From assembly GCA_913063325.1 (NCBI GenBank), contig CAJXYE010000037.1, positions 1 through 44,716 of the forward strand: 44,716 bases of DNA. Reading direction: 5' to 3'. Position numbers and translations under genes: made by a program. Position 1 is the first letter of the stretch. Each line of letters begins with the position of its first letter. Of this stretch, positions 11,711 to 44,609 are shown piece after piece. The notes beneath the pieces were generated by a model that was not told the DNA's origin, did not search any database, and saw nothing but the letters and a program-made list of their open reading frames with translations. The DNA comes from an uncultured Colwellia sp. GTDB taxonomy: Bacteria; Pseudomonadota; Gammaproteobacteria; Enterobacterales; Alteromonadaceae.

Positions 11711-12547
11711 TCAAAAACCTGTAGTAATAATGCTCTCTAGGGTTAATAACTTTTGCACTAACTGCTTTGCCATTGGAATAGCAGAAGCGGGGTTTTGCCC
11801 TGTGATTAAGCGGCCATCCACCACTACATGTGGTTTGCCCTTTGCTTTTGAGGAATAGCGTCCACCAAGTTCGATAATTTTATCTTCCAGTAAAAACGGA
11901 TAGTTGTTACGCGCCCAGTAACCCTCTTCGTGATTGGCTTTTGCGGTTAATTTTTTTCCGGAAATTAACCGAGTGCCATTTGAAAGTTTTACATTGAGTA
12001 AGCCGGCAATGCCGTGACAATCTGCAGCAACAAAACCGCCACTTTCATAAATTTCTGTAGTGAGTTTATGTAGTGCATCATTGTTAATAAAATCAAACAT
12101 GGGACCTGATCCACCAGCAAAATATATTGCTTGATAGTTACTGGCTTGTATTTGGTTAATCGTTAAAGAATTGGATAGCTTTGTTGGTAAACTTGATTGC
12201 TTCAGCCACTCTTCTTGCGCTGATGATAATCTTGAACTGCCACTTGCTTTGCCTTTGCCACCTAAAGGGCTAGCAATAGTAATTTCAAAACCTGCTTGTT
12301 GTAAAAGTTGATAAGGCTCTAATACTTCAGGTAGCCAATAGCCGTGTTTATCACTGGATATTATTATCAGAACTTTTGCCTTTGCTTTATCTAGCGTTTT
12401 GTTTTTTAAGGTTTGAACATTGCTGTTAGCAGCTGAACTGCTTAGGCTAAAAAAAGTAACAAATAAAATGCTAAAGCAGATCATTGAAAAAATTCGTAAT
12501 GTTACCTTTGGTTGTTTGTGTGTATTGAATGCGAAAATATCCTTCAT
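11711..12547 (-). CDS. Exported DJ-1/PfpI family protein
   Basis: This 278-residue protein belongs to the DJ-1/PfpI (type 1 glutamine amidotransferase-like) superfamily, closest in style to the Hsp31-like group. Visible features are GGSGPMFDF, typical of the GGHGxxxD motif, and the nucleophile elbow AADCHGIAG with Cys177. Residues 17-40 form a hydrophobic segment ending in SSSAA, a signal peptide or anchor, so it probably acts in the periplasm. Most relatives are cytoplasmic. GGAG precedes the ATG at 12547. Family members include chaperones, deglycase/glyoxalase-type enzymes and hydrolases, and the reaction here cannot be assigned. It is divergent from the membrane regulator gene. Confidence 0.8.
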   Translation of the reverse strand: MKDIFAFNTHKQPKVTLRIFSMICFSILFVTFFSLSSSAANSNVQTLKNKTLDKAKAKVLIIISSDKHGYWLPEVLEPYQLLQQAGFEITIASPLGGKGKASGSSRLSSAQEEWLKQSSLPTKLSNSLTINQIQASNYQAIYFAGGSGPMFDFINNDALHKLTTEIYESGGFVAADCHGIAGLLNVKLSNGTRLISGKKLTAKANHEEGYWARNNYPFLLEDKIIELGGRYSSKAKGKPHVVVDGRLITGQNPASAIPMAKQLVQKLLTLESIITTGF

Positions 12548-29459: not shown

Positions 29460-30524
29460 TTAAAGTAAATTGGTTAGGGCAATACCTATACCAAAGCGCT
29501 TTTGGTTGACGTTGTAGTCAATTAAACTTTCGCCATAACCGCTACTCATTTGCGCATAACCTTTCAGTTTACCCCATAATGGGAAGGTCACGCCAAACTC
29601 AATAAATCCGTTATGGGTAGCAAAATTATTACGACCTTTGAAAGAAAACTCATAGTCAGTGTCGTATTTATAGAGCAGGCCAAGCTCAAAGTGGCCCATA
29701 TAATCGAGAATATCCGGATTATCATCTCCTTGACCATCGGCAGGTGATTCTTTCTCACTTTCTGGAATTCGATACCATGGGCGCAATGATAGGGCAAAAT
29801 TTCGCTTTTCATAAAGGTAGTTAACATAGACACGATTCCAGCTTCTTGATAATACTTGTGAACGACCGTTTGATTGATGTTCACCGCCAACCACTAATGC
29901 TGAATTACCACCAAAAGGGTGAAAGCTAATGGGGGTGAAATAGAAAAACTCTGGCTGGTAATTGGTTTCTCTAAAAGGTTTAGATATTTCTGCCGAGTAA
30001 ATTTGCCACCATGACTGTAAGGTGAAGCCAAAAAATAGCTGATCACCTTCGCGAAATAAACTGTCAGTAAGCAGTGGTACTTTTAAACTGAGTTGAAACT
30101 TTGCTTCGATGTCTTTTAGCTCATCAGCCCAATCAGAAAAACCTTGGTAAGCTTCTCGATTAATTTCGTCGACCATAGATAAAGGTAAAATGTAATTCAT
30201 TTTATGTGGCGTGAGTACATAAGGATCGGCAGCGGTTCTTTTTTCTCGGATAACTCGGTTAGCTAAAACCCCTAACTCAACACTTTTACCGGTTGTTTTA
30301 CTCATGACTCTTTCAGCAACTTTTTGTTCACAGTAGTGTTCAATTTCCGCTAACGTGGCTGCTTTATCGGCACTTTTAATGGCTTTAAATAAACACATTT
30401 CGAACATGGCTTTATGGGAGGGCAGTTCTAATTCATCCATTTTACTATCAGCTGAATTGGCTTGCGTGATAATTGATAAAACAAGTAACAGTAGACAAAA
30501 TAAACGGCAGTGTATTGATATCAT
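29460..30524 (-). CDS. pldA: Outer-membrane phospholipase A (OMPLA)
   Basis: This 354-residue protein has a signal peptide ending near QANSA. The OMPLA active site is visible: His216 and Ser218 in EHQSNG, followed by SRSWNR with Asn230, giving the His-Ser-Asn arrangement of the family. The remainder is a 12-strand barrel in style. An N-terminal extension of about 90 residues (Cys, coiled) precedes the barrel compared with E. coli. It hydrolyses phospholipids in the outer leaflet when the membrane is disturbed. It faces the cyclase operon tail to tail, with no clear terminator in the 73-bp gap. Confidence 0.92.
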   Translation of the reverse strand: MISIHCRLFCLLLLVLSIITQANSADSKMDELELPSHKAMFEMCLFKAIKSADKAATLAEIEHYCEQKVAERVMSKTTGKSVELGVLANRVIREKRTAADPYVLTPHKMNYILPLSMVDEINREAYQGFSDWADELKDIEAKFQLSLKVPLLTDSLFREGDQLFFGFTLQSWWQIYSAEISKPFRETNYQPEFFYFTPISFHPFGGNSALVVGGEHQSNGRSQVLSRSWNRVYVNYLYEKRNFALSLRPWYRIPESEKESPADGQGDDNPDILDYMGHFELGLLYKYDTDYEFSFKGRNNFATHNGFIEFGVTFPLWGKLKGYAQMSSGYGESLIDYNVNQKRFGIGIALTNLL

Positions 30525-30847
30525 AATAGTTGATGGTTGTAGCTGAAATTGCTGGCGATTATAGCCTATCGAGCCTTCAATCTGTAGTCAGAGATCGCCA
30601 TAATAAATAACTAATATCCACTCCAATATCCGGAAATTATTGCTGCACGGTAAACGTCGACCTATTTCATCGGCTAAGTTGTTTCAAAATTATCACTAAG
30701 TATGTCTAATTATGTCAGATAATTTCAAAGCATTTCACCGTGGTGATTGGTCGTGTTTTTATCTCGATTAACCGCAAGCGCTCTTTCTTTATTCCTGAGT
30801 ACTTGTATCTTGATTGTTAAATAATGTAACTCACCATTGGAATTGCA
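30525..30847. promoter_or_regulatory. Divergent region between pldA and the RND operon
   Basis: No gene is convincing here. A direct repeat TATGTC occurs at 30701 and 30711 (10-bp period), next to a small inverted repeat ATTAT/ATAAT, and may be an operator. A 23-codon GTG frame (30753-30824) has hydrophobic leader character but no good ribosome-binding site. The promoter of the RND operon must lie in this stretch. Confidence 0.3.
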
Positions 30848-33800
30848 ATGAAACTCACCAAGAGCGCTTTAACTAGTCCAGCAGCCGTAGCTGTCGTTGT
30901 TGCCCTAACTTTACTTGTCGGCATGCTCAGTTTATTTAAATTACCCGTTCAGTTATTTCCTGATATTGAACGCCCACAAATAGGCATACAAACCTCTTGG
31001 CGTGCGGCATCACCTAAAGAAATTGAATCTGAGATTGTTGAACCCCAAGAGCAAGTGTTACGTGGTATCCCTGGGTTAGAATCAATGAGGGCTTTTGCTA
31101 ATAGAGGTGGCGCTTACATTAATTTATCTTTTGGTGTTGGCACTAATATGGAGCAAACGTTAATTGAAGTGATCAGCCGAATGACACGTGTTGCTAATTT
31201 GCCACAAGATGCCAGACCACCACGAGTTATGCTTGGTGGTGGTCGAGGTAATACCCCAGCGCTGACATTTTTCTTTTTACAGGCGTTACCGGGTAATGGC
31301 CAAGATATTAGTCAATATATGGATTTTACCAATGATGTCATCAGGCCGCGGCTTGAAGCGGTTGAAGGCGTTGCTAGTGTAGAAACGTTTTCGGAGCGAA
31401 ACCGAGAAGAATTACAAATTCGCTATGACCCTATTAAAGCCGCGGAGTATGGTATTGAAATACCACGTCTAATTTCCTTAGTTTCCGCTAGTGACGATGT
31501 TTCAGGTGGCTTTATCGATGTTGGTAGACGTCAATACACTTTACGTTACAGTGGTAAATACAGTGTTGATGAGTTATCCGAGTTAATGCTTGAGTCTCGT
31601 GGTGGCCGTAATATCCGCTTGAGTGATATTGCTACGGTGAAGGTTAGCAATACCGACAGACAAGGTATGGCGGTACAAAATGGTAATCCAGCCTTTTCAA
31701 TGCGCATTAATAGAGCCAATGGTGCCAATGTTTTAGAAACGTTAAATAGAGTAAAGACAGAGGTCAACTTACTTAATAATGAATTATTGGCGGATAAAAA
31801 ATTAGTGATGGTACAGTCTTTTGATGCCTCAGTATTTATTTACCGCGCTATTAACCTGGTGACGAGTAATTTATTCGCCGGTATTATTCTATCGCTATCA
31901 GTATTGTGGTTTTTCATTCGCCGAATGCGCGCAACGTTAATTATTGCTACCGCTATTCCGGTGAGTTTGTTAAGCACTTTTATCGTTTTAGAGATCACTG
32001 GTCGTTCACTGAATGTTATTTCATTAGCGGGTTTAGCTTTTGCGGTGGGCATGGTGCTAGATGCCGCTATTGTGGTATTAGAAAATATATTACGCATGCG
32101 TGATAAAGGTTTGAATGAACATGATAGTGCTGAGCAAGGCGCAGAACAGGTTTGGGGAGCTCTACTTGCCTCTACAGCGACAACCGTAGCGATATTTTTA
32201 CCGGTATTTTTCTTAAAAGATATAGAAGGGCAACTCTTTGGTGATTTAGCCCTAACAATCGCTATTGCAGTCTCTGTTTCACTTATCGTTGCCGTGGTAC
32301 TGCTACCTGTTCTATCAAAATACTTTTTAAAACAACAAGAAGTAAACGATCCCAACAAAAAACTGTGGCAGAGAATTACTCGCTTTGTTATGAGCATCAC
32401 AGGTAATCGTACTAAACGTCTATCTCTCTCGGCGACCCTTTTAATATTACCCGTTGTCATAACCATAATTGCCATGCCTAAACTGGATTATTTACCACCA
32501 GTAAAGCGCGATGCCATAGACGCTAACTTACAATTCCCGCCGGGCTCAAATGTTAAAACTATCGAAAAAGAAGTTATTCAACCTATTGTTGAGCGTTTAC
32601 AGCCTTATATGGACGGCACCAAAGAGCCGGCATTAAAGAACTATTATATTTTTGGTGGCTCGTGGGGTGGTAGCTTAGGGGTTCGAGTAAAAGACCAAGA
32701 CCGAGTGGATGAGCTACTTGAGATTGTTAAAAATGAAATATTAATCGACCTACCGGATACGCGTGTATTTGCCAGACAAGGTAATTTATTTGGCGGTTTT
32801 GGCGGCGGTAGAAGCGTACAAGTACATTTGCAATCTAAAGATACCAAAGCCTTGCAAGAAGTAGCGCGCCAAGGCATGGATTGGATAAAAGAAGCCATTG
32901 AAGGGGCTAACGTAAACGCAAACCCTGGCCTTTCGATGTCAGAACCAGAAATTAATTTAAGCCCTAATGACCGTAATATATTAGAGCAAGGCTGGAATCG
33001 CCGCGATGTTGGTCGTGTGGTGCGAACGTTAGGCGACGGACTGTATGTAGGTGAGTATTTTAATGGTAGTAAACGTTTGAATATGATTTTACGTGCCGAT
33101 GGTTGGGATGATCCTGATAACTTAGGTGATGTGCCAGTTGTTACTGGAAACGGCAGCGTCACGCAGTTATCTCATTTAGTCGATATACAACGTACTGTAG
33201 GTCCAAGCCGATTAACGCGTATTGACGGACAGCGTACTATTAGCCTAAATGTTAATCCTCCGAAAGGCTGGTCGTTAGAAGAAACCATCTCAGCTTTAAA
33301 AGCTGAAGTAGAGCCCAAATTACGCAGTATCATGCCAGCAGGCGGCAATATTCAATATGGCGGCAGTGCCGATCAACTCGAAAAAGCGATTACAGTAATG
33401 GCTGAAAACTTTGCTTTTGCTTTGGTGATTTTATTCTTACTGATGGCTGCATTGTTCAAATCAATCAAAGACAGCTTGTTGGTAGTTATTACCATTCCTT
33501 TAGCGACTGTTGGCGGTATTTTAGCACTGCAACTACTTAACTTGAGTGTCTTTCAACCTCTTGATTTACTAACCATGATTGGTTTTATCATTTTGCTGGG
33601 CTTAGTGGTGAACAACGCTATTTTGTTGGTGCATCAAACTCGATTAGGTCAGCAAGATGGACTTGAGCGTTCAGAGGCTATTGAGCAGGCATTAAGCTTG
33701 CGCTTACGACCTATATTTATGAGTACAGCAACGAGCTTTTTTGGCATGTTACCGTTATTACTTATGCCAGGGGCGGGCAGTGTTATTTATCGCGGTCTAG

Positions 33801-33952
33801 CGGCAGTTATTGTCGGCGGTTTAGCGTTTAGTACAATATTTACCATAGTGTTATTGCCATGTTTATTAAGACTATCTAAACACGATTTCTTCTTAAGCCG
33901 CAGTAAAAAAGACACAGTACAACAGTTACCAAGCGCTCGAGTTAAAGCGTAA
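30848..33952 (+). CDS. RND efflux transporter permease (AcrB/HAE1-like)
   Basis: This 1034-residue protein has the full RND architecture: an N-terminal span, a large periplasmic porter loop, five spans around 340-490, then a repeat of the pattern with spans around 860-1010. Typical motifs include FPDIERPQIGI near the start, AFAVGMVLDAAIVVLENI in TM4 and LLGLVVNNAILLV in TM10. The proton relay differs from AcrB: the Asp-Asp pair of TM4 is Asp-Ala, and the TM10 Lys is Asn. The transporter may still use the single Asp, as in metal-efflux members. The adaptor gene follows instead of preceding it, and no outer-membrane channel is encoded. Confidence 0.9.
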   Translation: MKLTKSALTSPAAVAVVVALTLLVGMLSLFKLPVQLFPDIERPQIGIQTSWRAASPKEIESEIVEPQEQVLRGIPGLESMRAFANRGGAYINLSFGVGTNMEQTLIEVISRMTRVANLPQDARPPRVMLGGGRGNTPALTFFFLQALPGNGQDISQYMDFTNDVIRPRLEAVEGVASVETFSERNREELQIRYDPIKAAEYGIEIPRLISLVSASDDVSGGFIDVGRRQYTLRYSGKYSVDELSELMLESRGGRNIRLSDIATVKVSNTDRQGMAVQNGNPAFSMRINRANGANVLETLNRVKTEVNLLNNELLADKKLVMVQSFDASVFIYRAINLVTSNLFAGIILSLSVLWFFIRRMRATLIIATAIPVSLLSTFIVLEITGRSLNVISLAGLAFAVGMVLDAAIVVLENILRMRDKGLNEHDSAEQGAEQVWGALLASTATTVAIFLPVFFLKDIEGQLFGDLALTIAIAVSVSLIVAVVLLPVLSKYFLKQQEVNDPNKKLWQRITRFVMSITGNRTKRLSLSATLLILPVVITIIAMPKLDYLPPVKRDAIDANLQFPPGSNVKTIEKEVIQPIVERLQPYMDGTKEPALKNYYIFGGSWGGSLGVRVKDQDRVDELLEIVKNEILIDLPDTRVFARQGNLFGGFGGGRSVQVHLQSKDTKALQEVARQGMDWIKEAIEGANVNANPGLSMSEPEINLSPNDRNILEQGWNRRDVGRVVRTLGDGLYVGEYFNGSKRLNMILRADGWDDPDNLGDVPVVTGNGSVTQLSHLVDIQRTVGPSRLTRIDGQRTISLNVNPPKGWSLEETISALKAEVEPKLRSIMPAGGNIQYGGSADQLEKAITVMAENFAFALVILFLLMAALFKSIKDSLLVVITIPLATVGGILALQLLNLSVFQPLDLLTMIGFIILLGLVVNNAILLVHQTRLGQQDGLERSEAIEQALSLRLRPIFMSTATSFFGMLPLLLMPGAGSVIYRGLAAVIVGGLAFSTIFTIVLLPCLLRLSKHDFFLSRSKKDTVQQLPSARVKA

Positions 33953-33980
33953 TAACAAATCAGAGATTAAGGAATAAATC

Positions 33981-35162
33981 ATGAATAATTTAATGCTAAC
34001 CAATGTTGTACCACCGAAGATGACACATTCAAAGTTTGTGTCTTTAAAGAAAAAACCTGGAAAAATTGAGCTGCACAGCTCTGTACTGGTAACGTTTTCA
34101 TTTATATCAGCGCTTGTCTTATTGAGCTTTAGTGGTAAAGCCACTGCTGAGACACCGGAAAAGCCAGCACACTTAGTCAGTGTTGAGTCGGTTAAAAAAG
34201 AGCAAGTAAAACCGAGTATTTGGTTACCAGCTAATGTTATCAGTCGAAAAAACTCCCCTATCTCTGCCGAGCAAACGGGACAGTTACTGTGGATTGAAGA
34301 GGTAGGTAGTCAAGTTGAAAAAGGCCAGCTGTTAGCTCAAATTGATGATAGACATTTGAAATTGCAATTGGCGGGTCAACAAGCACAAGGTAAGCAGCAT
34401 CAAGCGAATGTCGATTATCTCACCGGACAAAAAGCACGATTCTTAAAATTGCGAGAAAAAAACAATTCAGCATTAAGTGAATATGAGCGTGTTAATAAAG
34501 ATCTTATCATAGCCACGAACGAAGTTGTCGCTTTGAATATTTCGATGGAACAAACCTTACTTGCCTTAGAAAAAACATCTATAAAAGCACCTTTTGCTGG
34601 AAATATCAGTAAACGATTTGTACATGTTGGTGAGTTAATTGCCGTTGGCCGTCCATTGGTGCAACTCATAGATACTAAGAATCTTGATATTAAAATTGCA
34701 GCGCCAATTTCAATCGCACCTTTTCTGAAAAAAGGCAGCAAAGTGATGGTTAAGTGGAATCAAACCTTGCTTGAACTACCTGTGCGTACCTGGAGTCAGG
34801 CGGGCGATCAAGCTTCACGCACTTTTGATGTAAGACTTGCTGCCGATGGTATCGAGATGTTAGCGGGTACACCTGTGACGGTTTCTTTACCTAAGCAATC
34901 GCCAAGAGAAGCGATTTTAGTACCACGTGATGCATTGATATTACGAGAAAATGAAACGTATGTATTAACCATAGATGATGATAAACAAGCTCAAAAGGTG
35001 TCTGTACTTATTGGTCAAGGTGTCAATCGTTGGGTATCAGTAACGGGCGCTTTATCGGTCAGTGATAGTGTTGTTGTTCGTGGTGGTGAGCGTTTACAAA
35101 GTGGTGAGAAAGTTCGATTTATTAATGATAAAAAGGATGTTGTCATTGCTCAGGTTAATTAA
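33981..35162 (+). CDS. RND efflux periplasmic adaptor subunit
   Basis: This 393-residue membrane fusion protein has an N-terminal anchor or signal (about 35-52, ending KATAE). A split lipoyl domain follows (SAEQTGQLLWIEEVGSQVEKG and IKAPFAGNISKRFVHVG), then a helical hairpin between the halves (about 125-190). A beta-barrel and a membrane-proximal domain (VPRDALILRENETYV, GVNRWVSV) end it. It should pair with the RND permease encoded 28 bp upstream and with a TolC-type channel elsewhere. AAGGAA lies before the ATG. An intrinsic terminator follows. Confidence 0.9.
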   Translation: MNNLMLTNVVPPKMTHSKFVSLKKKPGKIELHSSVLVTFSFISALVLLSFSGKATAETPEKPAHLVSVESVKKEQVKPSIWLPANVISRKNSPISAEQTGQLLWIEEVGSQVEKGQLLAQIDDRHLKLQLAGQQAQGKQHQANVDYLTGQKARFLKLREKNNSALSEYERVNKDLIIATNEVVALNISMEQTLLALEKTSIKAPFAGNISKRFVHVGELIAVGRPLVQLIDTKNLDIKIAAPISIAPFLKKGSKVMVKWNQTLLELPVRTWSQAGDQASRTFDVRLAADGIEMLAGTPVTVSLPKQSPREAILVPRDALILRENETYVLTIDDDKQAQKVSVLIGQGVNRWVSVTGALSVSDSVVVRGGERLQSGEKVRFINDKKDVVIAQVN

Positions 35163-35312: not shown

Positions 35313-36716
35313 TTATTTTTTACCTAATAACGTAAATATTTTATTGGCGATATCGGTATTATCGATCTTGCCTTTAAACATTTCACTGTTTTTTCCAAAG
35401 GCAAAAACAGGTACGTCAATAGCTGTGTGGCCACTTGATGTCCAACCACTGTTAGTGCGCTTATCGATTAGTTTCTTTATCGCAATATAAATGGTTGTTT
35501 CAATGCTCGGTTTAATCTGCTCTTTCTGTGCACTCTCATTTAAACCATAAAAATCGACAAGGTTTTTAGAGGTTTGCTCTTTTGCTTGTTGCAATAAAAG
35601 TACTTCTTCTTGAGTTACTGCAAAGTTAAGTAGCTCACTAGTGGCTTTTATTGTGATGTCTGTAATCGCTAATTTTTTAGCTATTTTGTGTGGCGAATTT
35701 TTCATGGTACGGAGCACTGTAGGATCCCACTCATATTTACCGTTGGCAGCAATAGTAAATCCACCCGTGCTGTGATCAGCTGTTAGCACCACAAGCGTAT
35801 CTGGATTTTTTGCTACGTATTGCTCTAAGTATTCTACTGTTTTGGCAAGGTCGGTCATTTCAGCCATTGCTGATGCTATATCATTGCTGTGGCCAGCCCA
35901 GTCAATTTGACTACCCTCAACAAGAAGAAAATAACCTTTATCATTCTCTAACTGTTTGGTTGCTGCTTTTGTCATTGTCGATAAACGAAGCTGATTGCTG
36001 TCATCAAGTGCCCAAGGTAAACCTACATCAGCAAAAAGCCCTAACACAGGCTTGTGTTGTGGCAGTTTACTTAAACCTTCAGCGTTATCAAGGTAATGAA
36101 AGCCTGCGGACTGAAACTCTTCGACCAAGTTGCGATCGTCACGAATAAAGTATTCCCAGCCACCGCCTAAGATAATATCGGCTTTTATGCCTTCATCGAT
36201 ATAGCTATCGGCAATTGCATTATAGTTTCTTCTACTTTCATTATGCGCAAGGTAAGACGCAGGGGTTGCGTGGTTAACTTGAGACGTTACAACAATACCT
36301 GTTTTCTTGCCTTGCTTCTTTGCCCACTCAAGCACTGTTTCAACAGACTTCTTATCAACATCTACGCCGATAGCGCCGTTATAACTTTTAACGCCAGTGG
36401 CTAATGCAGTTGCGGCGGCGGCTGAATCGGTAACATAACCTGATATACGAGCAGGGTAGGTACTTGCCATACCAACAAGCAGGCGGTCAAAAACAGTTTC
36501 TTCAATAATTTTTGTTTCTGGATTATCATCAAAGTAACGATAAGCAGTGGTATAAGCGGGTCCCATACCATCACCGACTATCATGATGATATTTTTAGGG
36601 CCGCTAAGTGAGCTTAAGGCGACAGAGTTATCTACTGAAGTACCACCAGAATGTTCGGTAGTAGTACAAGCACTCAGTGCGAGAGTGACAAAAACGGCAG
36701 AAAGTAATTTTTTCAT
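35313..36716 (-). CDS. Alkaline phosphatase, lipoprotein form
   Basis: This 467-residue protein belongs to the PhoA-type alkaline phosphatase family. The signal peptide has lipobox LSAC (Cys17), so it is membrane-anchored. Asp49 in IIMIVGDGMG is a metal ligand, and Ser98 in VTDSAAAATALATG is the nucleophile. Metal ligands also occur in VEGSQIDWAGHSND, VLTADHSTGG and SSGHTAIDVPVFA. It releases phosphate from nucleotides and other monoesters outside the cytoplasm. It is downstream of the secreted EEP enzyme (54-bp gap) and the RutR-like regulator, forming an apparent operon. Phosphate released from nucleotides would leave nucleosides for uptake. Confidence 0.92.
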   Translation of the reverse strand: MKKLLSAVFVTLALSACTTTEHSGGTSVDNSVALSSLSGPKNIIMIVGDGMGPAYTTAYRYFDDNPETKIIEETVFDRLLVGMASTYPARISGYVTDSAAAATALATGVKSYNGAIGVDVDKKSVETVLEWAKKQGKKTGIVVTSQVNHATPASYLAHNESRRNYNAIADSYIDEGIKADIILGGGWEYFIRDDRNLVEEFQSAGFHYLDNAEGLSKLPQHKPVLGLFADVGLPWALDDSNQLRLSTMTKAATKQLENDKGYFLLVEGSQIDWAGHSNDIASAMAEMTDLAKTVEYLEQYVAKNPDTLVVLTADHSTGGFTIAANGKYEWDPTVLRTMKNSPHKIAKKLAITDITIKATSELLNFAVTQEEVLLLQQAKEQTSKNLVDFYGLNESAQKEQIKPSIETTIYIAIKKLIDKRTNSGWTSSGHTAIDVPVFAFGKNSEMFKGKIDNTDIANKIFTLLGKK

Positions 36717-36770
36717 TATGTGGGTTCTTGTAGTTAATTCATTGTAATAAATAGTGAAATATAAGCGTGG

Positions 36771-37955
36771 TTAATCTTTTGTTGTCAGTTCAAGCCAAAC
36801 CAAACGATGGTCTGATGATGCTTTTCTATCTTTTATTAAGCGATAGCTTTCTTGTGTTTCTAATGGCCAAAATACACCTGAGTTATTGATGGTTAAGCTT
36901 AAAACTGACGCTAATACATAATCAACTCTCATACCCCAATTTGAGGTATGGTGTTTAGCATTTATATTCTCAGGTTTATGAAGCTTACCCGCTTGGCTCT
37001 GTGGCATAGCATCTTGGATTTTAGCATTGTTTAATAATGAGGCTATGCCTGATTTAATGGCATTACCATCAACAGTAGTCGCATTAAAGTCACCTAACAT
37101 AACAAATGCTTGCTCTGCTTTAATTCCGCCTTTGTGACCATTGTCATCATAAATATAACCGGCTAACTCAGGACTAATATAATCATGCCAAAAACGAATT
37201 TCGTCATGATTACGTTTACCATTCCTGTCTTCCGGGCCATCAAATACAGGTGGTGTCGGGTGACTAGCGAGTATGTGAATTGTTTTACCCTTGACCTCTA
37301 CAGGCACATCCCAATGTGACTTGGATGAAAGTCTCAGTTTTTGCCATACTGCTTGGCTGTACCAAGGTTTGTTTGTTGCAGGATCTATTGGCATTAATGC
37401 ATTAGGCATATCATGCCATTTAAAGTGTTGGAAAGTTCGAATGTTAGCAACATCTATGGGATATTTTGATAATAGTGCCATACCAAAATGACCTGGGAAG
37501 TGGCCATAGCCATAACCATCGCCGGGTAACTCCCCTTTTTTGCCGTTTCCGTCGATATCCAGACCAGAATTTATCCCTGTGTTAACAGGACCTTGGTAAA
37601 AGTAAGGGAAATTAACTGCCTTTTGACCGTGTTGGCTTTTATTTAAGTAGCTATTTATAAAGATTTTTAAGGCTTCATTATTATCATCTAGATAATCAAA
37701 TTCATTGAGTAGAATGATGTCAGGGTTAATCCTTTGGATGATCTCAGCAATATTTTTTATCTGTTGATGATCACTTTTCAAAGCTGCTTTTAGCGTTTTT
37801 TCTGAAACATTGGGTGATTCGCCACGTTTATGTGCAACGTAGTTGAGGGCTTCCATACTGACATTAAAGGTAGCAATTTTTAATGTGGTGTCTTGTGCAA
37901 TAGTCATATGAGGGAACACCCAGATAAGTAAGGCTATGATTGAATATTTTTTCAT
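36771..37955 (-). CDS. Secreted endonuclease/exonuclease/phosphatase-family protein
   Basis: This 394-residue protein has a signal peptide (MKKYSIIALLIWVFPHMTIA, then QD) and an EEP-fold catalytic domain. Visible residues are Asn in IATFNVS, Glu in LLNEFDY, the MLGDFNAT motif, and the C-terminal SSDHRLVWLEL with the catalytic Asp-His. This superfamily includes DNase I-like nucleases and phosphoesterases. A secreted nuclease or phosphodiesterase is the natural reading beside an alkaline phosphatase and nucleoside catabolism genes, but the substrate is not proven. The TetR regulator gene ends 20 bp upstream on the same strand, so they are probably co-transcribed. Confidence 0.85.
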   Translation of the reverse strand: MKKYSIIALLIWVFPHMTIAQDTTLKIATFNVSMEALNYVAHKRGESPNVSEKTLKAALKSDHQQIKNIAEIIQRINPDIILLNEFDYLDDNNEALKIFINSYLNKSQHGQKAVNFPYFYQGPVNTGINSGLDIDGNGKKGELPGDGYGYGHFPGHFGMALLSKYPIDVANIRTFQHFKWHDMPNALMPIDPATNKPWYSQAVWQKLRLSSKSHWDVPVEVKGKTIHILASHPTPPVFDGPEDRNGKRNHDEIRFWHDYISPELAGYIYDDNGHKGGIKAEQAFVMLGDFNATTVDGNAIKSGIASLLNNAKIQDAMPQSQAGKLHKPENINAKHHTSNWGMRVDYVLASVLSLTINNSGVFWPLETQESYRLIKDRKASSDHRLVWLELTTKD

Positions 37956-37975
37956 AATGTTTTTACGCTAATAAA

Positions 37976-38608
37976 TTAAATTAAGCCGCAGCCTCGTAAT
38001 ATTATGTCAGATAAGAAGGCAATAACTTGTTCAACATCATGCTCTTCGAAATCGGCTTGATTCATTATGGTTAATATTTGCGTGTCAAAATCAGCATAAT
38101 GTTGGGTAGCAGACCAGATAAGAAAAATGAGGTGCACGGGATCTACATTGACCATTTCGCCATTGTCTATCCAGTGTTGAAATAACTTAGCTTTTTCTCT
38201 TACCCACTGGCGTTGGTAGGTGCGGGCATAATCTTTTAAGTGCTGCGCGCCTTGAATAATTTCCATCGCATATATCTTTGATGCTTCGGGGTGATTGAAT
38301 GACATTCTTACCTTGGCAGCAATAAACTTTTCTATCGCTATTTTAGGTCCTTCATCTGGCACTATGTCCCCTATACCTTGGTCCCACATTTCAAGAGTGT
38401 TTTCAAGTACAGCATGATAAATATTCTCTTTGTTTTTGAAATAATAGAGGATATTTGCTTTTGGCAGCTCAGCCCTGTCAGCAATAGATTGCACTGTTGC
38501 TCCTCTATAGCCTTGCAGTACAAACTCGGTTCTAGCAGCGCTTAGAATTTTAACTTGGCTCTTTACTCGAATATTACCTGTCTTTTTTGTTTGGTTATCG
38601 CTGCTCAT
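37976..38608 (-). CDS. TetR-family regulator, RutR-like
   Basis: This 210-residue protein has a TetR N-terminal helix-turn-helix (about 37-60; VQSIADRAELPKANILYYFKNKENIY). Its C-terminal domain strongly resembles E. coli RutR: LPKANILYYF recalls VSKTNLLYYF, and DPVHLIFLIWSATQHYADF recalls DPQHLIFMIWASTQHYADF. RutR senses uracil and thymine and represses or activates pyrimidine genes. The E. coli RutR box (TTGACCAnnTGGTCAA) is nearly perfectly matched in front of cdd in this window. I infer that it controls cdd and deoA, and possibly its own EEP/phosphatase operon. The effector could be a pyrimidine base. No RutR box was found immediately upstream of its own start. Confidence 0.88.
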   Translation of the reverse strand: MSSDNQTKKTGNIRVKSQVKILSAARTEFVLQGYRGATVQSIADRAELPKANILYYFKNKENIYHAVLENTLEMWDQGIGDIVPDEGPKIAIEKFIAAKVRMSFNHPEASKIYAMEIIQGAQHLKDYARTYQRQWVREKAKLFQHWIDNGEMVNVDPVHLIFLIWSATQHYADFDTQILTIMNQADFEEHDVEQVIAFLSDIILRGCGLI

Positions 38609-39500
38609 GTTCAGTACTCTGTCTGCGTAATTGTTTCATGGTTTTTCATCATGATACTGTTATGACTATTCTTATGCGACTTTTTAGCAGTCGTACCGGC
38701 AGAAGTCACACCTTTTCTAAAATTAATATTAACCAATTAGTCAGGATGTTAAACCTAGCTACTTTATATTGACTATTCATGGTTGTTATAAATGTAATTT
38801 ATCGAAAAGGAAAAGTACATAATATCCTTGTTTGATTTCATCTTTGTCGTAAATATTCTGCTATAGACTTTTCATGGGCGCGATATTAAATCTTACTCGC
38901 ACCTGTAGTGCAATAGAGCTTTGTCTTTTTAGTGGCCTGCCCGTAAGTTATTGATAGTTAATCATTAAATATCTTTTGGGCGGATGGCTAGGTAATCTCT
39001 TATGTTAAAACGGAATTAAAGGGGCTGTATTAATAACAATATTTCATATGAAAAGATACTGAATAAATATATTAGCAGTCATTATGTTTAGGTTCTTCTT
39101 ATGTCTCTGAAAATAATGAGTTTTATTCACGAGTTATCCGTTCCTAGTAACTGGTCTGATGTCTGTGTTTTTGGTGTGTGTAGGAATATGTGAAAATATG
39201 TAATGAAACTGACATAAAAGTCTGGTCTAATTTCATTCGAAATAAAAAGCTGAGCAATTGGTTAAGTTTTATGTTGCTTATAACAAGTTGAAATAAAATA
39301 ACAATAAAAACCATTTTATATCATTTGCATTAATTAAGGTTACAGAATTTAATGAGATTAAATTTTCAAGAACAAGGCGCTTGATTAAACAATAGCTGGC
39401 TATTGGGATTGAGAGCAACGATGTTATTGGATATTTAGGCCATTTAAAATGATCACTTAGTGAGTGCAATTGATATTACAACCATACATAGGAATAACAG
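38609..39500. promoter_or_regulatory. Long 892-bp intergenic region upstream of the TonB receptor
   Basis: No convincing gene is present in either direction. A possible promoter TTGACT-18 bp-TGTAAT lies at 38769-38798. CTGGTCTGAT (39151) and CTGGTCTAAT (39222) form a direct repeat whose TGGTC core equals half of the RutR box. AATGAAA (39202) and TTTCATT (39231) form an inverted repeat around the second copy. The length suggests a long 5' leader or an unrecognised small RNA. Confidence 0.4.
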
Positions 39501-42500
39501 ATGAAAACTCATCGTCTATCACATATATCAAGCGCGCTAATTCTTGCACTTGGACTATCAACATCTGCTTTGGCAAATACTACAACATCAGCCATTAAAG
39601 GTAATATTAGCGGTCCTAACGGCAATGCTGCTGTGGGTACGAAAATTACAATTGTGCATGTACCATCCGGAACAACTAAAACCGCAATAGTGAACGAGTC
39701 AGGTCTTTTCACTGCAAAAGGTTTAAGAGTTGGTGGGCCTTACCGAGTAGTTGTCGATTCAAATAAATTTGAAGATACAACAGTTAAAGATATTTATTTA
39801 ACTTTGGGTGAGACATTCCCATTGAATGTAGCGTTAAACTCTCAAAGTGATGTAGAAACTATTGTTGTAACAGGTCGTTCAGTTAGTATGAATTCTGGCG
39901 GTACTGGGCCTGCGGCACACTTCACTGCTGATGATTTAAAAAGTGCTCCATCAATCAATCGTGATATTAAAGATATTGTTCGAATAGATCCTCGTATCTA
40001 TATTGATGAAAGTCGCAGTGATGCAATCCAGTGTGGTGGTGGTAACCCAAGGTTTAATAGTTTAACTGTTGATGGCGTTCGTATGAACGACAGCTTTGGT
40101 TTGAATGAAAATGGATATCCAACAACGCGTATTCCTTTTTCTTATGACTCCATTGACCAAGTATCGGTTGAGCTAGCACCATTTGATGTTAAATATGGCG
40201 GTTTTACCTCTTGTAACATCAATGCGGTCACCAAATCCGGTACCAATGAAGTACACGGTAGCGTATTTTTAGACTACAGCAATGATTCGATGAAAGGCGA
40301 TAGCATTGAAGGTGAGCACCAAGATAATGGTGATTACGATGATAAACGTTATGGCTTTAATGTTGGTTTACCATTAGTAGAAGACACGCTGTTTTTATTC
40401 GCTTCTTATGAAAAACTTGATGGTGCACAACTCTTTGAATATTCACCTATGGGTGGAAGCAACCCACAAGTTACCCAAGGCGATATTGATCGTATAAACC
40501 AAATATCAATGGATAAGTATGGTTATAATGCCGGTGGCACTCCTGCAAGTATGCCTGTTGATGATGAGAAAATTCTTATTAAGTTAGATTGGAACATTAA
40601 CGAAGACCATCGTGCTAGTTTAGTTTATAACTACAATGATGGTTTTAAATTAGACCAGTCTGATGAATGGGGCATGACCTTAGATAACCATTTCTATGAG
40701 TCAGGCGCAGAAATGAATTCATTTGCTGTAGCGGTTAACTCTGATTGGTCAGATAACTTTTCGACAGAAGTACGAGTGGGTCATACGGAGTTAGAAAATA
40801 GACAACAATCTTTAGATGCTGCTAGTGGTTTCGGTGAAGTTCAGATTCGTCATAACGGTACTACGGTATTCTTAGGTCCCGATGATTCTCGTCAATCAAA
40901 TGAGATGAACTGGGAAACCACTACGTTTAAAATGTCAGGTAGTTATTACTTAGATCAACATACTATTACCGGTGGTTATGAATATGAAACCTTAACGGCA
41001 TTTAACTTATTTATGCAACATACTGTTGGTGAATATCGCTTTGGCTCTATTGATGAATATGAAGCGGGTTTAGCAGATCGTGTTTATTATAACAATTCAG
41101 CAGGTACCAATATACCAAGTGATGCTAGCCAAGAGTTCACTTACGGTACACATACTTTCTATATTCAAGATGAATACACTTTCACTGATATTGATGCAAC
41201 GTTAACTGTAGGTTTGCGTTATGACCGTTATAGCAGCAATGATAATCCTCGTTACAATGCTCAATTTGAGGAACGTTATGGTGTTCGCAATGATAAAAAC
41301 ATGGATGGTATCGACTTAATACAGCCACGTGTTGGCTTTAATTGGGCGGTGCAAGACAATTTAGAAGTTCGCGCTGGTTTTGGCCTTTACTCAGGCGGTA
41401 ACCCAAATGTTTGGTTGTCTAACTCTTACTCAAACGATGGTTTAGTGAATATTGGCGAACGTGCTAAATATCATAAAGATACCATTGCTATGGATGATGG
41501 CAGATTTGATTTATTCAATACACCGTCTTCAAGCTCTCAAGGGCCAGGATATGGTGTACCACAAGTAATGGTTGATGCCATTGGCGATCTAGATGAACTT
41601 AGTGGTAATGGCTCGGTGAATGCAACGGATCCAAACTTTGAAATTCCATCAGAGTGGAAATATGCTTTAGGTGCAACGTTTACCACCGACAACGATTATA
41701 TTATCTCGGCAGATATTTTGCATAACCGTAAGCAAAATTCAGCAACAATTCTTGATTATAACCTTGAATATGGTGAAAAAACGTTTGATGGTCGTTCTAC
41801 GTATCAATCAGTTACTCATCCTGACGGCGTAGACAACGTCTCAAGTGAATTTGTTTTAACTAATACTAGCAGCGATGGTAGCTCTACTATTGTTTCACTC
41901 GCGTTAAGCAAAAGCTTTGACTTTGGCTTAGATACTTCATTTGGTTATTCTTATACCAAGTCTGAAGACGCTAACCCGATGACAAGTGCTGTTGCAGGCT
42001 CTAACTATAGTAATTTAGCCACTACTGATGCTATTAACCCACCAATGACAACTTCTAACTATGAAATCCCACATCGTTTTACAATGAATTTGAGTTACGG
42101 TGTTGAGCTTATTGCCGGTTTAGAAACGCGTGTTAGTTTATTTGGCCAAGCAAGTGAAGGCCAAGCTTACTCATATACTTATGATAGTTCTGACCGTGCT
42201 TTTGGTGATAATAACTGGAATGGTAGCCGTCAATTAGTCTATATACCAACAAATGACGATGCTAATGTCGTTTACGGCCCTGATTTTGATAAGGCAGCGT
42301 TTGATGATTTTGTTGCTGCAGAAGGGCTAGCTCGTGGCCAAACGACAGGCCGAAATGCCCAAAATGCAGATTGGCATGTAAGTTTTGACATCAAGATTAA
42401 CCAAGAAATCCCTGGCTTTATGGAAGGTCATCGCGGTAATGCATTCTTTATCATTAAAAATGTTGGCAACATGATAAATGACGATTGGGGGGTGATGAAG

Positions 42501-42656
42501 CAAGGTCAGTTCGTCGGTAACCGCATGGTTGAGATGTCGATTCAAGAAGATGGAAAATACTTATATGAGGCTTTCAACGCTGGTAATGAAGAACAAAAAT
42601 TCTACAAAGATGCCTCTGTTTGGGAAATGCGCGTAGGTGTAAGTTACGACTTTTAA
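39501..42656 (+). CDS. Oar-like TonB-dependent receptor
   Basis: The 1051-residue protein starts at ATG 39501 with AGGAA ahead. After a signal peptide (ending near ALAN), a carboxypeptidase-regulatory-like domain covers about 30-110 (AIKGNISGPNGNAAVGTKI). A TonB box-like ETIVVTG, a plug domain (about 125-260; SINRDIKDIVRIDPRIYID, LTVDGVRMND, VTKSGTNEVHGSVF) and a large 22-strand-type barrel ending in SYDF follow. This is the Oar-like receptor class common in marine Alteromonadales, which imports large or oligomeric substrates. Its position between secreted phosphoesterases and cdd-deoA suggests nucleosides, nucleotides or oligonucleotides as ligand; that is inference from context. A strong terminator follows. 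Confidence 0.9.
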   Translation: MKTHRLSHISSALILALGLSTSALANTTTSAIKGNISGPNGNAAVGTKITIVHVPSGTTKTAIVNESGLFTAKGLRVGGPYRVVVDSNKFEDTTVKDIYLTLGETFPLNVALNSQSDVETIVVTGRSVSMNSGGTGPAAHFTADDLKSAPSINRDIKDIVRIDPRIYIDESRSDAIQCGGGNPRFNSLTVDGVRMNDSFGLNENGYPTTRIPFSYDSIDQVSVELAPFDVKYGGFTSCNINAVTKSGTNEVHGSVFLDYSNDSMKGDSIEGEHQDNGDYDDKRYGFNVGLPLVEDTLFLFASYEKLDGAQLFEYSPMGGSNPQVTQGDIDRINQISMDKYGYNAGGTPASMPVDDEKILIKLDWNINEDHRASLVYNYNDGFKLDQSDEWGMTLDNHFYESGAEMNSFAVAVNSDWSDNFSTEVRVGHTELENRQQSLDAASGFGEVQIRHNGTTVFLGPDDSRQSNEMNWETTTFKMSGSYYLDQHTITGGYEYETLTAFNLFMQHTVGEYRFGSIDEYEAGLADRVYYNNSAGTNIPSDASQEFTYGTHTFYIQDEYTFTDIDATLTVGLRYDRYSSNDNPRYNAQFEERYGVRNDKNMDGIDLIQPRVGFNWAVQDNLEVRAGFGLYSGGNPNVWLSNSYSNDGLVNIGERAKYHKDTIAMDDGRFDLFNTPSSSSQGPGYGVPQVMVDAIGDLDELSGNGSVNATDPNFEIPSEWKYALGATFTTDNDYIISADILHNRKQNSATILDYNLEYGEKTFDGRSTYQSVTHPDGVDNVSSEFVLTNTSSDGSSTIVSLALSKSFDFGLDTSFGYSYTKSEDANPMTSAVAGSNYSNLATTDAINPPMTTSNYEIPHRFTMNLSYGVELIAGLETRVSLFGQASEGQAYSYTYDSSDRAFGDNNWNGSRQLVYIPTNDDANVVYGPDFDKAAFDDFVAAEGLARGQTTGRNAQNADWHVSFDIKINQEIPGFMEGHRGNAFFIIKNVGNMINDDWGVMKQGQFVGNRMVEMSIQEDGKYLYEAFNAGNEEQKFYKDASVWEMRVGVSYDF

Positions 42657-42698
42657 ATAACTTGAGATACAATTCTTAAATAGGATATTCAAGTAATA

Positions 42699-42724
42699 AA
42701 GGCTGCATTTTTGCAGCCTTTTTT
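42699..42724 (+). terminator. Rho-independent terminator after the TonB receptor
   Basis: AAGGCTGCA and TGCAGCCTT form a perfect 9-bp stem with a 4-base T loop, followed by a T-run. It separates the receptor transcript from cdd. Confidence 0.92.
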
Positions 42725-42786
42725 ATTGGCTATTTTTTATTAAATGGTAGTAAGCACGATTATTCACTTAACAGTCTTTAAATAAC

Positions 42787-42802
42787 TTGACCATATGGTC
42801 AG
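42787..42802. promoter_or_regulatory. RutR-box-like palindrome upstream of cdd
   Basis: TTGACCATATGGTCAG matches the E. coli RutR consensus TTGACCAnnTGGTCAA at every defined position except the last. The inner 14 bp (42788-42801) are a perfect palindrome. It is 48 bp before the cdd start and overlaps the predicted -35 element, so repression by the RutR-like TetR protein is likely. Confidence 0.75.
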
Positions 42803-42825
42803 CAATGATATGCTCAAGGTATAAA
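42796..42825 (+). promoter_or_regulatory. Predicted cdd-deoA promoter
   Basis: A -35 candidate TGGTCA (42796-42801) and a -10 TATAAA (42820-42825) are 18 bp apart, upstream of cdd. The -35 lies inside the RutR-box palindrome. Confidence 0.45.
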
Positions 42826-42849
42826 TAACGCACGCTACTTTGGAACATC

Positions 42850-43281
42850 ATGAAAGAAATAAAAATAGAATTACTCGATGAAGTACTTGATGAAGTAATC
42901 GCCGCAGCTAAAGCCGCTTACCATTTGGCTTATGCCCCTTACAGTAATTTTCATGTTGGTGCTGCCGCGTTAACAAGCAATGGAAACATAGTGAAAGGCT
43001 GTAATGTCGAAAACGCGTCATACGGCTTGACTGTCTGTGCAGAGCGTAACTGTATTAGCAACTCGGTAATTAATGGCGAGCAGCAATTTGAAGTCATTGT
43101 TGTTTATACCGAGCAAGATAAATTAACACCACCGTGTGGTGCTTGCAGACAAGTTATCGCTGAATTTTTTGAGCAATCAGCCCCCGTGCTTTCTGTTAAT
43201 CATAAAAATGAACGAAAAGTTTGGACTGTAGAGCAGTTATTACCAAACGCATTTACCCCAAAAGATTTATTAGAATTATAA
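42850..43281 (+). CDS. cdd: Cytidine deaminase (homotetrameric type)
   Basis: This 143-residue enzyme deaminates cytidine and deoxycytidine to uridine and deoxyuridine in the cytoplasm. The zinc site is intact: Cys63 and Glu65 in VCAERNC, and Cys96 and Cys99 in PPCGACRQV. NVENASYGLT is the substrate-binding stretch. The short length and three-Cys zinc site indicate the small homotetrameric class, not the longer dimeric E. coli type. It is 11 bp ahead of deoA and has a RutR-box-like palindrome at its promoter. Confidence 0.96.
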   Translation: MKEIKIELLDEVLDEVIAAAKAAYHLAYAPYSNFHVGAAALTSNGNIVKGCNVENASYGLTVCAERNCISNSVINGEQQFEVIVVYTEQDKLTPPCGACRQVIAEFFEQSAPVLSVNHKNERKVWTVEQLLPNAFTPKDLLEL

Positions 43282-43292
43282 GGATTTAATTA

Positions 43293-44609
43293 ATGTCAGT
43301 AATCAGTAAAATTATCCCACAAGAAATTATCCGACTTAAACGTAATGGCCAAGTTTTAAACGAGCAAGCAATAAATGGCTTTGTTTCAGGTCTAGTTGAT
43401 GGCAACTTTTCAGACAGCCAAGTTGGCGCTATGGCGATGGCTATTTTTCAAAATGGCATGACGATTGATGAAAGAGTTTATTTTACCAAAGCTATGATGA
43501 ATTCAGGTGATGTACTCAGCTGGGAAGGCTTTGATGGCCCTATCGTTGATAAGCATTCAACGGGCGGTGTTGGTGATAAAGTGAGCTTCATGTTAGCGGC
43601 CATCGTTGCTGCTTGTGGCGGTTATGTTCCGATGATTTCAGGGCGTGGCTTGGGGCATACAGGCGGCACCGCAGATAAGCTTGAAAGTATTGCAGGGTTT
43701 AATGTACAGCCGAGTATCAGTGAATTTAAAAAGATTGTTAAGGATGTTGGTGTTGCAATTATTTCTCAAACCGATAATTTAGCACCTGCAGATAAGCGTT
43801 TGTATTCGATTCGTGACGTTACTGCTACCGTTGAGTCTATTCCTTTAATTACCGCTTCAATTTTGTCTAAAAAGCTTGCTGCTGGCTTAGATGCTTTAGT
43901 CATGGATGTTAAAGTAGGTAATGGCGCTATGATGAATAATTTAGATGATGCTAAAGCCCTTGCTGAAAGTATTGTTAACGTTGCAAATGGTGCAGGTGTT
44001 AAAACGCAGGCTATTATTACCGACATGAATCAAGTATTAGGCACTAGTGCTGGTAATGCTATTGAAATGTATGAAACGGCTAAATACTTAACGGGTAAAC
44101 AACGAGAGCCACGTTTACATAAAATTGTTCAAGCACTGGCTAGCGCAATGTTGATTAATACCAATTTGGCTAGCGGTGAAAAAGAAGCCCATGAAAAAAT
44201 AGACAAAGTATTAAGATCAGGTTTAGCGGCTGAAGTATTTGGTCGCATGGTGGCTGCATTAGGTGGCCCGAAGAACTTTATTGAAAAACCATGGGACTGT
44301 ATGACAAAAGCAAATGTTATCGTGGAAGTGAAAGCCGCACAACATGGTTATATTGCGCAAATGGATACTCGTGCTATTGGCATGTCGGTTGTTGGTTTAG
44401 GCGGCGGTAGAACGGCACCAGCACAACAAGTAGATCACACCGTTGGCTTTGATCGAATATTACCGTTAGGTGTACAAGTTAATCGAGGTGAAGTGGTTGC
44501 CCGTGTTCATGCTAAAAATGAGGACGATGCGAATAGAGCGATTGAGCAATTTACTAATGCCCTTAGCTACACTGAAGAAAGCCCAGAGTTACCACCGGTA
44601 ATTTATTAG
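43293..44609 (+). CDS. deoA: Thymidine phosphorylase
   Basis: This 438-residue protein has close to the usual length for the enzyme. The glycosyl-transferase family signature DKHSTGGVGDK covers 86-96, and SGRGLGHTGGTADKLESI is also characteristic. It splits thymidine or deoxyuridine with phosphate into base and deoxyribose-1-phosphate, following cdd in the pathway. AAGGA precedes the ATG 11 bp after cdd, so they form one transcript. No deoB, deoC or deoD follows within the remaining 107 bp. Confidence 0.96.
   Translation: MSVISKIIPQEIIRLKRNGQVLNEQAINGFVSGLVDGNFSDSQVGAMAMAIFQNGMTIDERVYFTKAMMNSGDVLSWEGFDGPIVDKHSTGGVGDKVSFMLAAIVAACGGYVPMISGRGLGHTGGTADKLESIAGFNVQPSISEFKKIVKDVGVAIISQTDNLAPADKRLYSIRDVTATVESIPLITASILSKKLAAGLDALVMDVKVGNGAMMNNLDDAKALAESIVNVANGAGVKTQAIITDMNQVLGTSAGNAIEMYETAKYLTGKQREPRLHKIVQALASAMLINTNLASGEKEAHEKIDKVLRSGLAAEVFGRMVAALGGPKNFIEKPWDCMTKANVIVEVKAAQHGYIAQMDTRAIGMSVVGLGGGRTAPAQQVDHTVGFDRILPLGVQVNRGEVVARVHAKNEDDANRAIEQFTNALSYTEESPELPPVIY

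What the first reader, a model, noticed from the sequence alone, without database searches (positions are those of the whole stretch)
35313..44609. RutR-like regulator linked to a nucleic-acid/nucleoside scavenging locus
A RutR-like TetR regulator, a secreted EEP-family enzyme, a lipoprotein alkaline phosphatase, an Oar-like TonB receptor, cytidine deaminase and thymidine phosphorylase are contiguous. In order they could cut nucleic acid, remove phosphate, import the product and catabolise pyrimidine nucleosides. A RutR-type box at the cdd promoter ties the regulator to the catabolic end. The receptor's ligand and the joint function are inference.
Basis: partly seen in the sequence, partly recalled or inferred. 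Interest (0 to 1): 0.8.

Follow-up and report, generated by a model that had tools for sequence, protein, structure and literature searches.

The report
Nucleic-acid scavenging locus under RutR-like control
In Colwellia-like marine bacteria a conserved gene block sets a RutR-family regulator beside genes predicted to cut nucleic acid outside the cell, import the pieces and break down nucleosides, and shared RutR-type DNA boxes at its promoters suggest that one regulator likely switches the whole chain.

Summary
The six genes and the box are as described. The link holds well beyond the window. cdd lies within 10 kb of the regulator in 27 of 30 regulator-positive genomes examined; in many relatives the block continues into deoB <box> udk-nupC-deoC-tdk. 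A RutR-type box (at most 2 mismatches) precedes cdd in 25 of 30 regulator-positive genomes against 1 of 21 regulator-negative ones with a cdd, and udk in 28 of 30 against 8 of 28. Weaker boxes lie in the tetR-oar gap of relatives, far above shuffles, and are the window's second and third best sites. In one Colwellia a fused EEP-phosphatase faces nupC across a perfect box and precedes a predicted endonuclease. The regulator is not RutR itself: 169.7 bits against a cut-off of 368, no rutA found, and uracil-pocket residue Y97 is F or I in 56 of 56 clade members. Receptor ligand, EEP substrate and effector remain inference. RegPrecise tables could not be read, so part of the regulon may already be recorded.

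The parts
35313..36716 (-). lipoprotein alkaline phosphatase (AP)
   Evidence: PF00245 352.8 bits; nearest solved chain 3a52 cold-active AP, E 1.6e-129; lipobox LSAC and the TDSAAAATA, TADHSTGG and SGHTAIDV motifs read from the sequence
36771..37955 (-). EEP-family hydrolase with signal-like N-terminus, predicted nuclease/phosphodiesterase
   Evidence: PF03372 101.4 bits; E85, H232, D289, N291, D382 and H383 invariant in 36 aligned sequences; model pLDDT 89.4 with DNase I-superfamily matches
37976..38608 (-). RutR-family TetR regulator, first gene of the tetR-EEP-AP run
   Evidence: PF08362 154 bits; 68 of 192 aligned residues identical to E. coli RutR; 20 nt between tetR and EEP and 54 nt between EEP and AP
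38729..38744 (.). weak RutR-type box, about 120 bp upstream of tetR (TTAACCAATTAGTCAG)
   Evidence: second-best PWM score of the whole window, 14.0; equivalent sites in relatives; overlaps the one promoter-like pair of the gap, 38752-38725 on the - strand (such pairs are no commoner there than in shuffles)
39250..39265 (.). weak RutR-type box, 236 bp upstream of oar (CTGAGCAATTGGTTAA)
   Evidence: third-best PWM score of the window, 13.8; oar-side sites in relatives
39501..42656 (+). Oar-type TonB-dependent outer-membrane receptor
   Evidence: CarboxypepD_reg 48.7 bits, OMP_b-brl_4 117.4 bits; the only match of this query in the own draft genome
42698..42721 (+). terminator-like hairpin after oar
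   Evidence: 10-pair stem followed by a T run
42787..42802 (.). strong RutR-type box on the -35 of the cdd promoter
   Evidence: (best PWM score of the window, 27.1); box upstream of cdd in 25 of 30 regulator-positive genomes
42787..42814 (+). promoter-like pair TTGACC-16-TATGCT with TG before the -10
42850..43281 (+). cytidine deaminase cdd
   Evidence: TIGR01354 153.9 bits over cut-off 113.65
43293..44609 (+). thymidine phosphorylase deoA
   Evidence: TIGR02643 621.6 bits over cut-off 570.7

Best explanation
This is a conserved nucleic-acid scavenging locus that is likely co-regulated as one unit, in which a RutR-family repressor is predicted to hold down surface enzymes, an outer-membrane receptor and nucleoside catabolic genes until a pyrimidine signal releases it. 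Shown: gene families, conserved gene order, boxes at the cdd, deoB/udk, oar and tetR promoters of relatives, joint absence in three same-genus genomes, and EEP-phosphatase fusions. Inferred: the EEP protein cuts DNA, RNA or nucleotide phosphodiesters outside the cell; the lipoprotein phosphatase removes phosphate; Oar takes the products across the outer membrane by the TonB system; NupC takes them across the inner membrane; Cdd, DeoA, DeoB, DeoC, Udk and Tdk salvage the base and feed (deoxy)ribose phosphate to central metabolism. The regulator would sit on the -35 of cdd and on the other boxes, block RNA polymerase, and leave when it binds a pyrimidine product such as thymine, uracil or a nucleoside.
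For: (1) Order deoA-cdd-oar-(divergent)-tetR-EEP-AP recurs in Colwellia, Psychrosphaera, Thalassotalea and Litorilituus loci; tetR and cdd lie within 10 kb in 27 of 30 regulator-positive genomes (misses G120, G008, G103). (2) In many relatives the block continues to tdk-deoC-nupC-udk <box> deoB (families). (3) A box within 400 nt upstream of cdd: 25 of 30 with the regulator, 1 of 21 without (Fisher p 1.3e-8, relatedness ignored); upstream of udk: 28 of 30 against 8 of 28, reversed-pattern control 0 of 58. (4) 35 tetR-oar gaps: mean best PWM score 14.7 against -1.7 for shuffles; in 30 of 35 none of 100 shuffles reached the score. Five tandem oar-oar gaps also carry a site (mean 17.8). (5) An EEP-AP fusion with a perfect box between it and nupC, followed by an LTD + endonuclease I protein; 21 of the 120 homologs listed are such fusions. 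(6) Without a local regulator, 16 of 18 Oar-EEP loci still hold nupC and udk, and 8 of 17 such loci scanned have a box between udk and oar. (7) Of six same-genus genomes searched, the locus-type Oar is found in the three with the regulator and in none of the three without. (8) Published seawater enrichments on DNA or nucleotides: Alteromonadales dominate transcription, and TonB systems and NupC are in the nucleic-acid core (PMC7546218, passages seen).
Confidence: 0.72

Rival explanations
1. The EEP and phosphatase serve phosphate acquisition from many phosphodiesters; they lie next to the nucleoside genes but their purpose is phosphorus, and Oar imports something else.
For: EEP lies beside a PhoX phosphatase in L053 and L083; the EEP fold is compatible with many substrates; Bacteroidota EEPs showed no nucleoside neighbours. 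One 3-mismatch Pho-box-like sequence lies at 39198 (consensus recalled).
Against: The promoters carry RutR-type boxes; no Pho-box-like sequence with 2 or fewer mismatches was found beyond position 34500; the EEP-AP fusion lies beside nupC with a perfect box between; Oar-EEP stays with nupC-udk in 16 of 18 loci without the regulator.
Confidence: 0.15
2. The cdd and udk boxes are bound by the second RutR-family protein of the genome (contig C33), and the local regulator controls only its own small operon or something else.
For: The genome has a second PF08362 protein. Some genomes with only the paralog type have boxes just upstream of the paralog gene (e.g. G164, G093, G121) and upstream of udk in 8 of 22 cases, against 0 of 6 with neither type (classes).
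Against: The cdd box follows the window-type regulator, not the paralog (25 of 30 against 1 of 21). In this genome the paralog sits with a class-V aminotransferase, malate synthase G and a urate oxidase N-terminal-domain protein without a comparable box nearby (best score in the 14.1 kb stretch 10.4, about 3.5 kb away). The local regulator is first gene of the EEP-AP run and relatives have boxes in front of it.
Confidence: 0.15
3. Oar works outward: like Myxococcus Oar with PopC it helps export the EEP enzyme or phosphatase, and nucleosides enter by another route (the second TonB receptor next to deoB, or a porin).
For: M. xanthus Oar is needed for PopC secretion (PMC6434023, start of abstract in the listing; PMC11658791 passages). 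Oar and EEP are neighbours in many loci with and without the regulator. A second TonB receptor follows deoB. E. coli Tsx passes nucleosides.
Against: EEP occurs without an Oar hit in reach in 40 of 80 loci, though several of these contigs are short; the phosphatase has a lipoprotein signal. Duplicated oar genes with their own boxes fit substrate receptors better.
Confidence: 0.15

Closest known systems
E. coli RutR regulon (rutA-G, carAB; uracil effector)
   Same: Same TetR_C_3 family, same box type (consensus recalled); W77, W167, Q171, Q179 and K52 kept in the window protein (residues named in passages of PMC10891134).
   Different: Only 35% identical, far below the RutR equivalog cut-off; no rutA found in the genome; targets are nucleoside and extracellular genes; Y97 replaced by F or I and L78 by D in 56 of 56 clade members.
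RutR regulons of Proteobacteria in RegPrecise (PMC5343134)
   Same: RutR regulons predicted in 68 genomes of 13 groups, with taxon-specific motif changes (passages seen).
   Different: The passages seen do not give Alteromonadales targets of RutR; Table S3 and the database could not be read, so overlap is possible.
Extracellular DNA use by Shewanella (extracellular nucleases, nucleotidases)
   Same: Same logic: outer nuclease, nucleotidase, nucleoside catabolism (PMC8289736 passages).
   Different: That main text holds no mention of TonB or outer membrane (0 hits). In Shewanella a Crp-family 'DeoR*' is predicted for nucleoside use (PMC3223726 passages).
Polysaccharide utilization loci; HypR regulon with secreted collagenases
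   Same: One regulator over secreted enzymes, TonB receptor and catabolism (HypR: PMC5343134 passage; PUL comparison recalled).
   Different: Here the polymer is predicted to be nucleic acid; the receptor is Oar-type and no SusD-like gene was seen among the ORFs of the window block.
Myxococcus xanthus Oar
   Same: TonB-dependent Oar-type barrel (PMC11658791 passages).
   Different: Known role there is secretion of PopC; import is predicted here.

Membership tests
RutR (TIGR03613 equivalog) | score over curated cut-off | tested here: not met
   169.7 against 368 bits
RutR (TIGR03613 equivalog) | regulates a rut uracil-catabolism operon | tested here: not met
   no RutA match in G000, and no D-hydantoinase/dihydropyrimidinase over cut-off; the genome is 87.6% complete
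RutR (TIGR03613 equivalog) | uracil-contact residues W77, W167, Q171, Q179 and water via Y97 | tested here: inconclusive
   first four kept in the window protein; over 56 distinct clade members W77, Q171, Q179 56 of 56, W167 54 of 56, but Y97 is F in 50 and I in 6
RutR (TIGR03613 equivalog) | released from DNA by uracil | not testable with these tools
   needs gel shift or calorimetry
RutR-like TetR family (PF08362) | TetR_C_3 domain plus TetR HTH | tested here: met
   154 and 47.1 bits, both over cut-off
RutR-like TetR family (PF08362) | RutR-type palindromic box at likely targets | tested here: met
   (sequence only; binding not tested)
EEP superfamily (PF03372) | domain and conserved acidic/His residues | tested here: met
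   101.4 bits; invariant residues in 36 aligned sequences
Secreted nuclease | hydrolyses DNA or RNA | not testable with these tools
   fold does not decide
Alkaline phosphatase (PF00245) | domain over cut-off | tested here: met
   352.8 bits; 3a52 relative
Oar-type TonB-dependent receptor | CarboxypepD_reg, plug and barrel | tested here: inconclusive
   CarboxypepD_reg and OMP_b-brl_4 over cut-off; Plug 23.5 against 23.9, just under
Oar-type TonB-dependent receptor | transports nucleic-acid products | not testable with these tools
   context only

The most novel reading that the evidence does not exclude
This is a nucleic-acid counterpart of polysaccharide utilization loci: the Oar clade is the first TonB receptor family dedicated to nucleotide, oligonucleotide or nucleoside import, and its regulator is a RutR-family sensor whose pocket was retuned (Y97 to F or I, L78 to D, in every one of 56 relatives) from uracil to thymine or to a whole nucleoside.
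Probability: 0.35. Interest if true: 0.85.

Novelty: new variant of a known kind. Interest (0 to 1): 0.62.

Why it matters
Nucleic acids are a labile source of carbon, nitrogen and phosphorus in the sea, and Alteromonadales respond to them strongly (PMC7546218 passages), but the passages that I saw name no energised outer-membrane route for the pieces (one search names only the E. coli Tsx channel for nucleosides). This locus names a candidate receptor family, a regulator and a binding site, all testable in culturable Colwellia or Thalassotalea. It would also show a uracil-sensor family moved from ring catabolism to the control of a polymer-scavenging regulon.

Tried and rejected

Papers: ten searches. 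No title or abstract start in their listings described an Alteromonadales RutR nucleoside regulon or a TonB receptor for nucleosides; each listing shows at most 20 papers of up to several hundred. Of PMC3400609 only reference-list hits were seen. Subscription papers, RegPrecise and supplements were not searched.

Errors of mine: some rows labelled paralog were second readings of window-type genes; the tree carries those labels, so its 'changes' figures mean nothing. One search counted 64 rows, among them double readings; one search recounts 56 distinct window-clade proteins and 4 paralogs (Y97 in 4 of 4), one fragment dropped.

Selection and dropped rows: of 196 family genomes, 58 have a window-type regulator (at least 285 bits); I gave 30 of these 58 and 35 of the other 138, chosen by hand. 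14 of the 35 had no cdd hit and 7 no udk hit. Only one cdd locus per genome was scanned; second cdd genes in G135 and G041 were not. Most cdd genes of the negative set are distant (31-50% identical); the two near ones (75% and 64%) have no box. One search left out L268 (21.8 bits). One search dropped identical sequences (35 cdd, 35 tetR-oar, 12 deoB-udk and 5 oar-oar regions kept).
Full report
What is there. The window is contig C37 of an unnamed draft genome (87.6% complete) whose nearest named relatives by EEP sequence are Colwellia (83%). Two runs of genes diverge from an 892-bp gap: tetR-EEP-AP to the left, oar then cdd-deoA to the right.

The regulator. It belongs to PF08362 and is 35% identical to E. 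coli RutR (68 of 192 aligned residues), but scores 169.7 bits against the RutR cut-off of 368. The genome has one more PF08362 protein, on C33, 40% identical, near a class-V aminotransferase, malate synthase G and a urate oxidase N-terminal-domain protein. No RutA and no dihydropyrimidinase over cut-off were found, so uracil-ring catabolism is not an evident target. Of the uracil contacts reported for E. coli RutR (PMC10891134, legend passage), both tryptophans and both glutamines are kept in the window protein. Y97 is F in 50 and I in 6 of 56 distinct window-clade sequences and L78 is D in 56 of 56, while the 4 paralogs in hand have Y. This suggests a related but altered ligand; it is not proof.

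The box. The cdd box is at 42787-42802, on the -35 of a promoter-like pair, the position of a classical repressor. The exact 14-bp pattern has one other copy in the draft genome: between deoB and udk, the latter followed by nupC, deoC and tdk, with a TonB receptor after deoB and with deoD and add nearby (names). In many relatives these genes lie in one block with the six window genes. Upstream of cdd a box with at most 2 mismatches is present in 25 of 30 regulator-positive genomes and 1 of 21 cdd-bearing regulator-negative genomes; upstream of udk in 28 of 30 and 8 of 28 (one of the two misses has only 55 nt of upstream sequence). The eight are all in genomes with a paralog-type protein (8 of 22, against 0 of 6 with neither; classes), so RutR-family control of nucleoside genes probably extends beyond the window clade.

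The outer half. A weight matrix from 41 cdd and deoB/udk boxes was run on 35 distinct tetR-oar gaps, which did not enter the matrix: mean best score 14.7 against -1.7 in shuffles (largest of 100 shuffled means 0.41); for 34 of 35 at most 3 of 100 shuffles reached the score, for 30 of 35 none. Sites often lie about 65-150 bp and 290-430 bp upstream of tetR. Five tandem oar-oar gaps also carry a site. With a matrix from 30 relatives' cdd boxes, the three best sites of the whole window are the cdd box (27.1) and the two gap sites at 38729 (14.0) and 39250 (13.8); the fourth scores 13.6 at 13753, so the margin is small.

Independent links. In Colwellia sp. 75C3 and 12G3 an EEP is fused to the phosphatase (829-aa ORFs; in 75C3 Exo_endo_phos 54-405 and Alk_phosphatase 421-827). 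In 75C3 this is a second EEP of the genome; it stands across a perfect box from nupC and is followed by an LTD plus endonuclease I protein. 21 of the 120 homologs listed are such fusions. In Paraglaciecola, Arsukibacterium, Rheinheimera and others, Oar-EEP sits beside nupC-udk without a local regulator (16 of 18 such loci), and 8 of 17 of these loci scanned have a box between udk and oar; the Arsukibacterium, Alishewanella and Rheinheimera loci have none. Of six same-genus genomes searched, the three without the regulator gave no match to this Oar, and also none to the cdd or the udk. In 247 genomes of the order, window-type regulators over 285 bits were seen only in the same family; a neighbouring family has intermediate ones at 248-259 bits.

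Verdict. The finding is real, and broader than stated: a predicted regulon running from the cell surface to deoxyribose catabolism. RutR-family control and DNA scavenging are each known; their union with a dedicated Oar receptor is the new part, unless RegPrecise already lists it.

Noticed in passing
L042:8860-11349, L051:8947-11436 (Colwellia sp. 75C3 and 12G3): Natural fusion of EEP and alkaline phosphatase in one 829-aa protein; 21 of 120 listed homologs have this architecture.
   Followed up: partly
L042:11430-13850: Protein with lamin-tail domains and an endonuclease I domain directly after the fusion gene, probably extracellular.
   Followed up: partly
L231:8398-11604 and 11753-12385 (G135:C3): A second copy of the regulator (88% identical) next to another Oar-like receptor (35% identical), in a genome that also carries the main locus on another contig.
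   Followed up: partly
L098:8004-8630 (G000:C33): RutR-family paralog near a class-V aminotransferase, malate synthase G and a urate oxidase-type protein; possible purine-catabolism regulator.
   Followed up: partly
L098:4690-5517 (G000:C33): 275-aa protein that looks to me like a Tsx/OmpK-type outer-membrane channel; no family match at E 1e-10 (Pfam) or 1e-20 (NCBIfam), so unconfirmed.
   Followed up: partly
L099:2324-4633 (G000:C10): A second TonB-dependent receptor (769 aa) directly downstream of deoB, found beside deoB in several relatives; another candidate nucleoside receptor.
   Followed up: no
L085:7801-10119 (Alteromonas confluentis): EEP domain fused to a peptidase family S58 domain; purpose unknown.
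   Followed up: no
window 29460-35162: Phospholipase A1 and an RND pump with its adaptor flank the locus; among the fetched loci they lie next to it only in close Colwellia relatives.
   Followed up: partly
window 36771-37955: An insertion in the EEP holds an EF-hand-like stretch (DIDGNGKKGE), varied in homologs; possible calcium site (my reading of the alignment).
   Followed up: no
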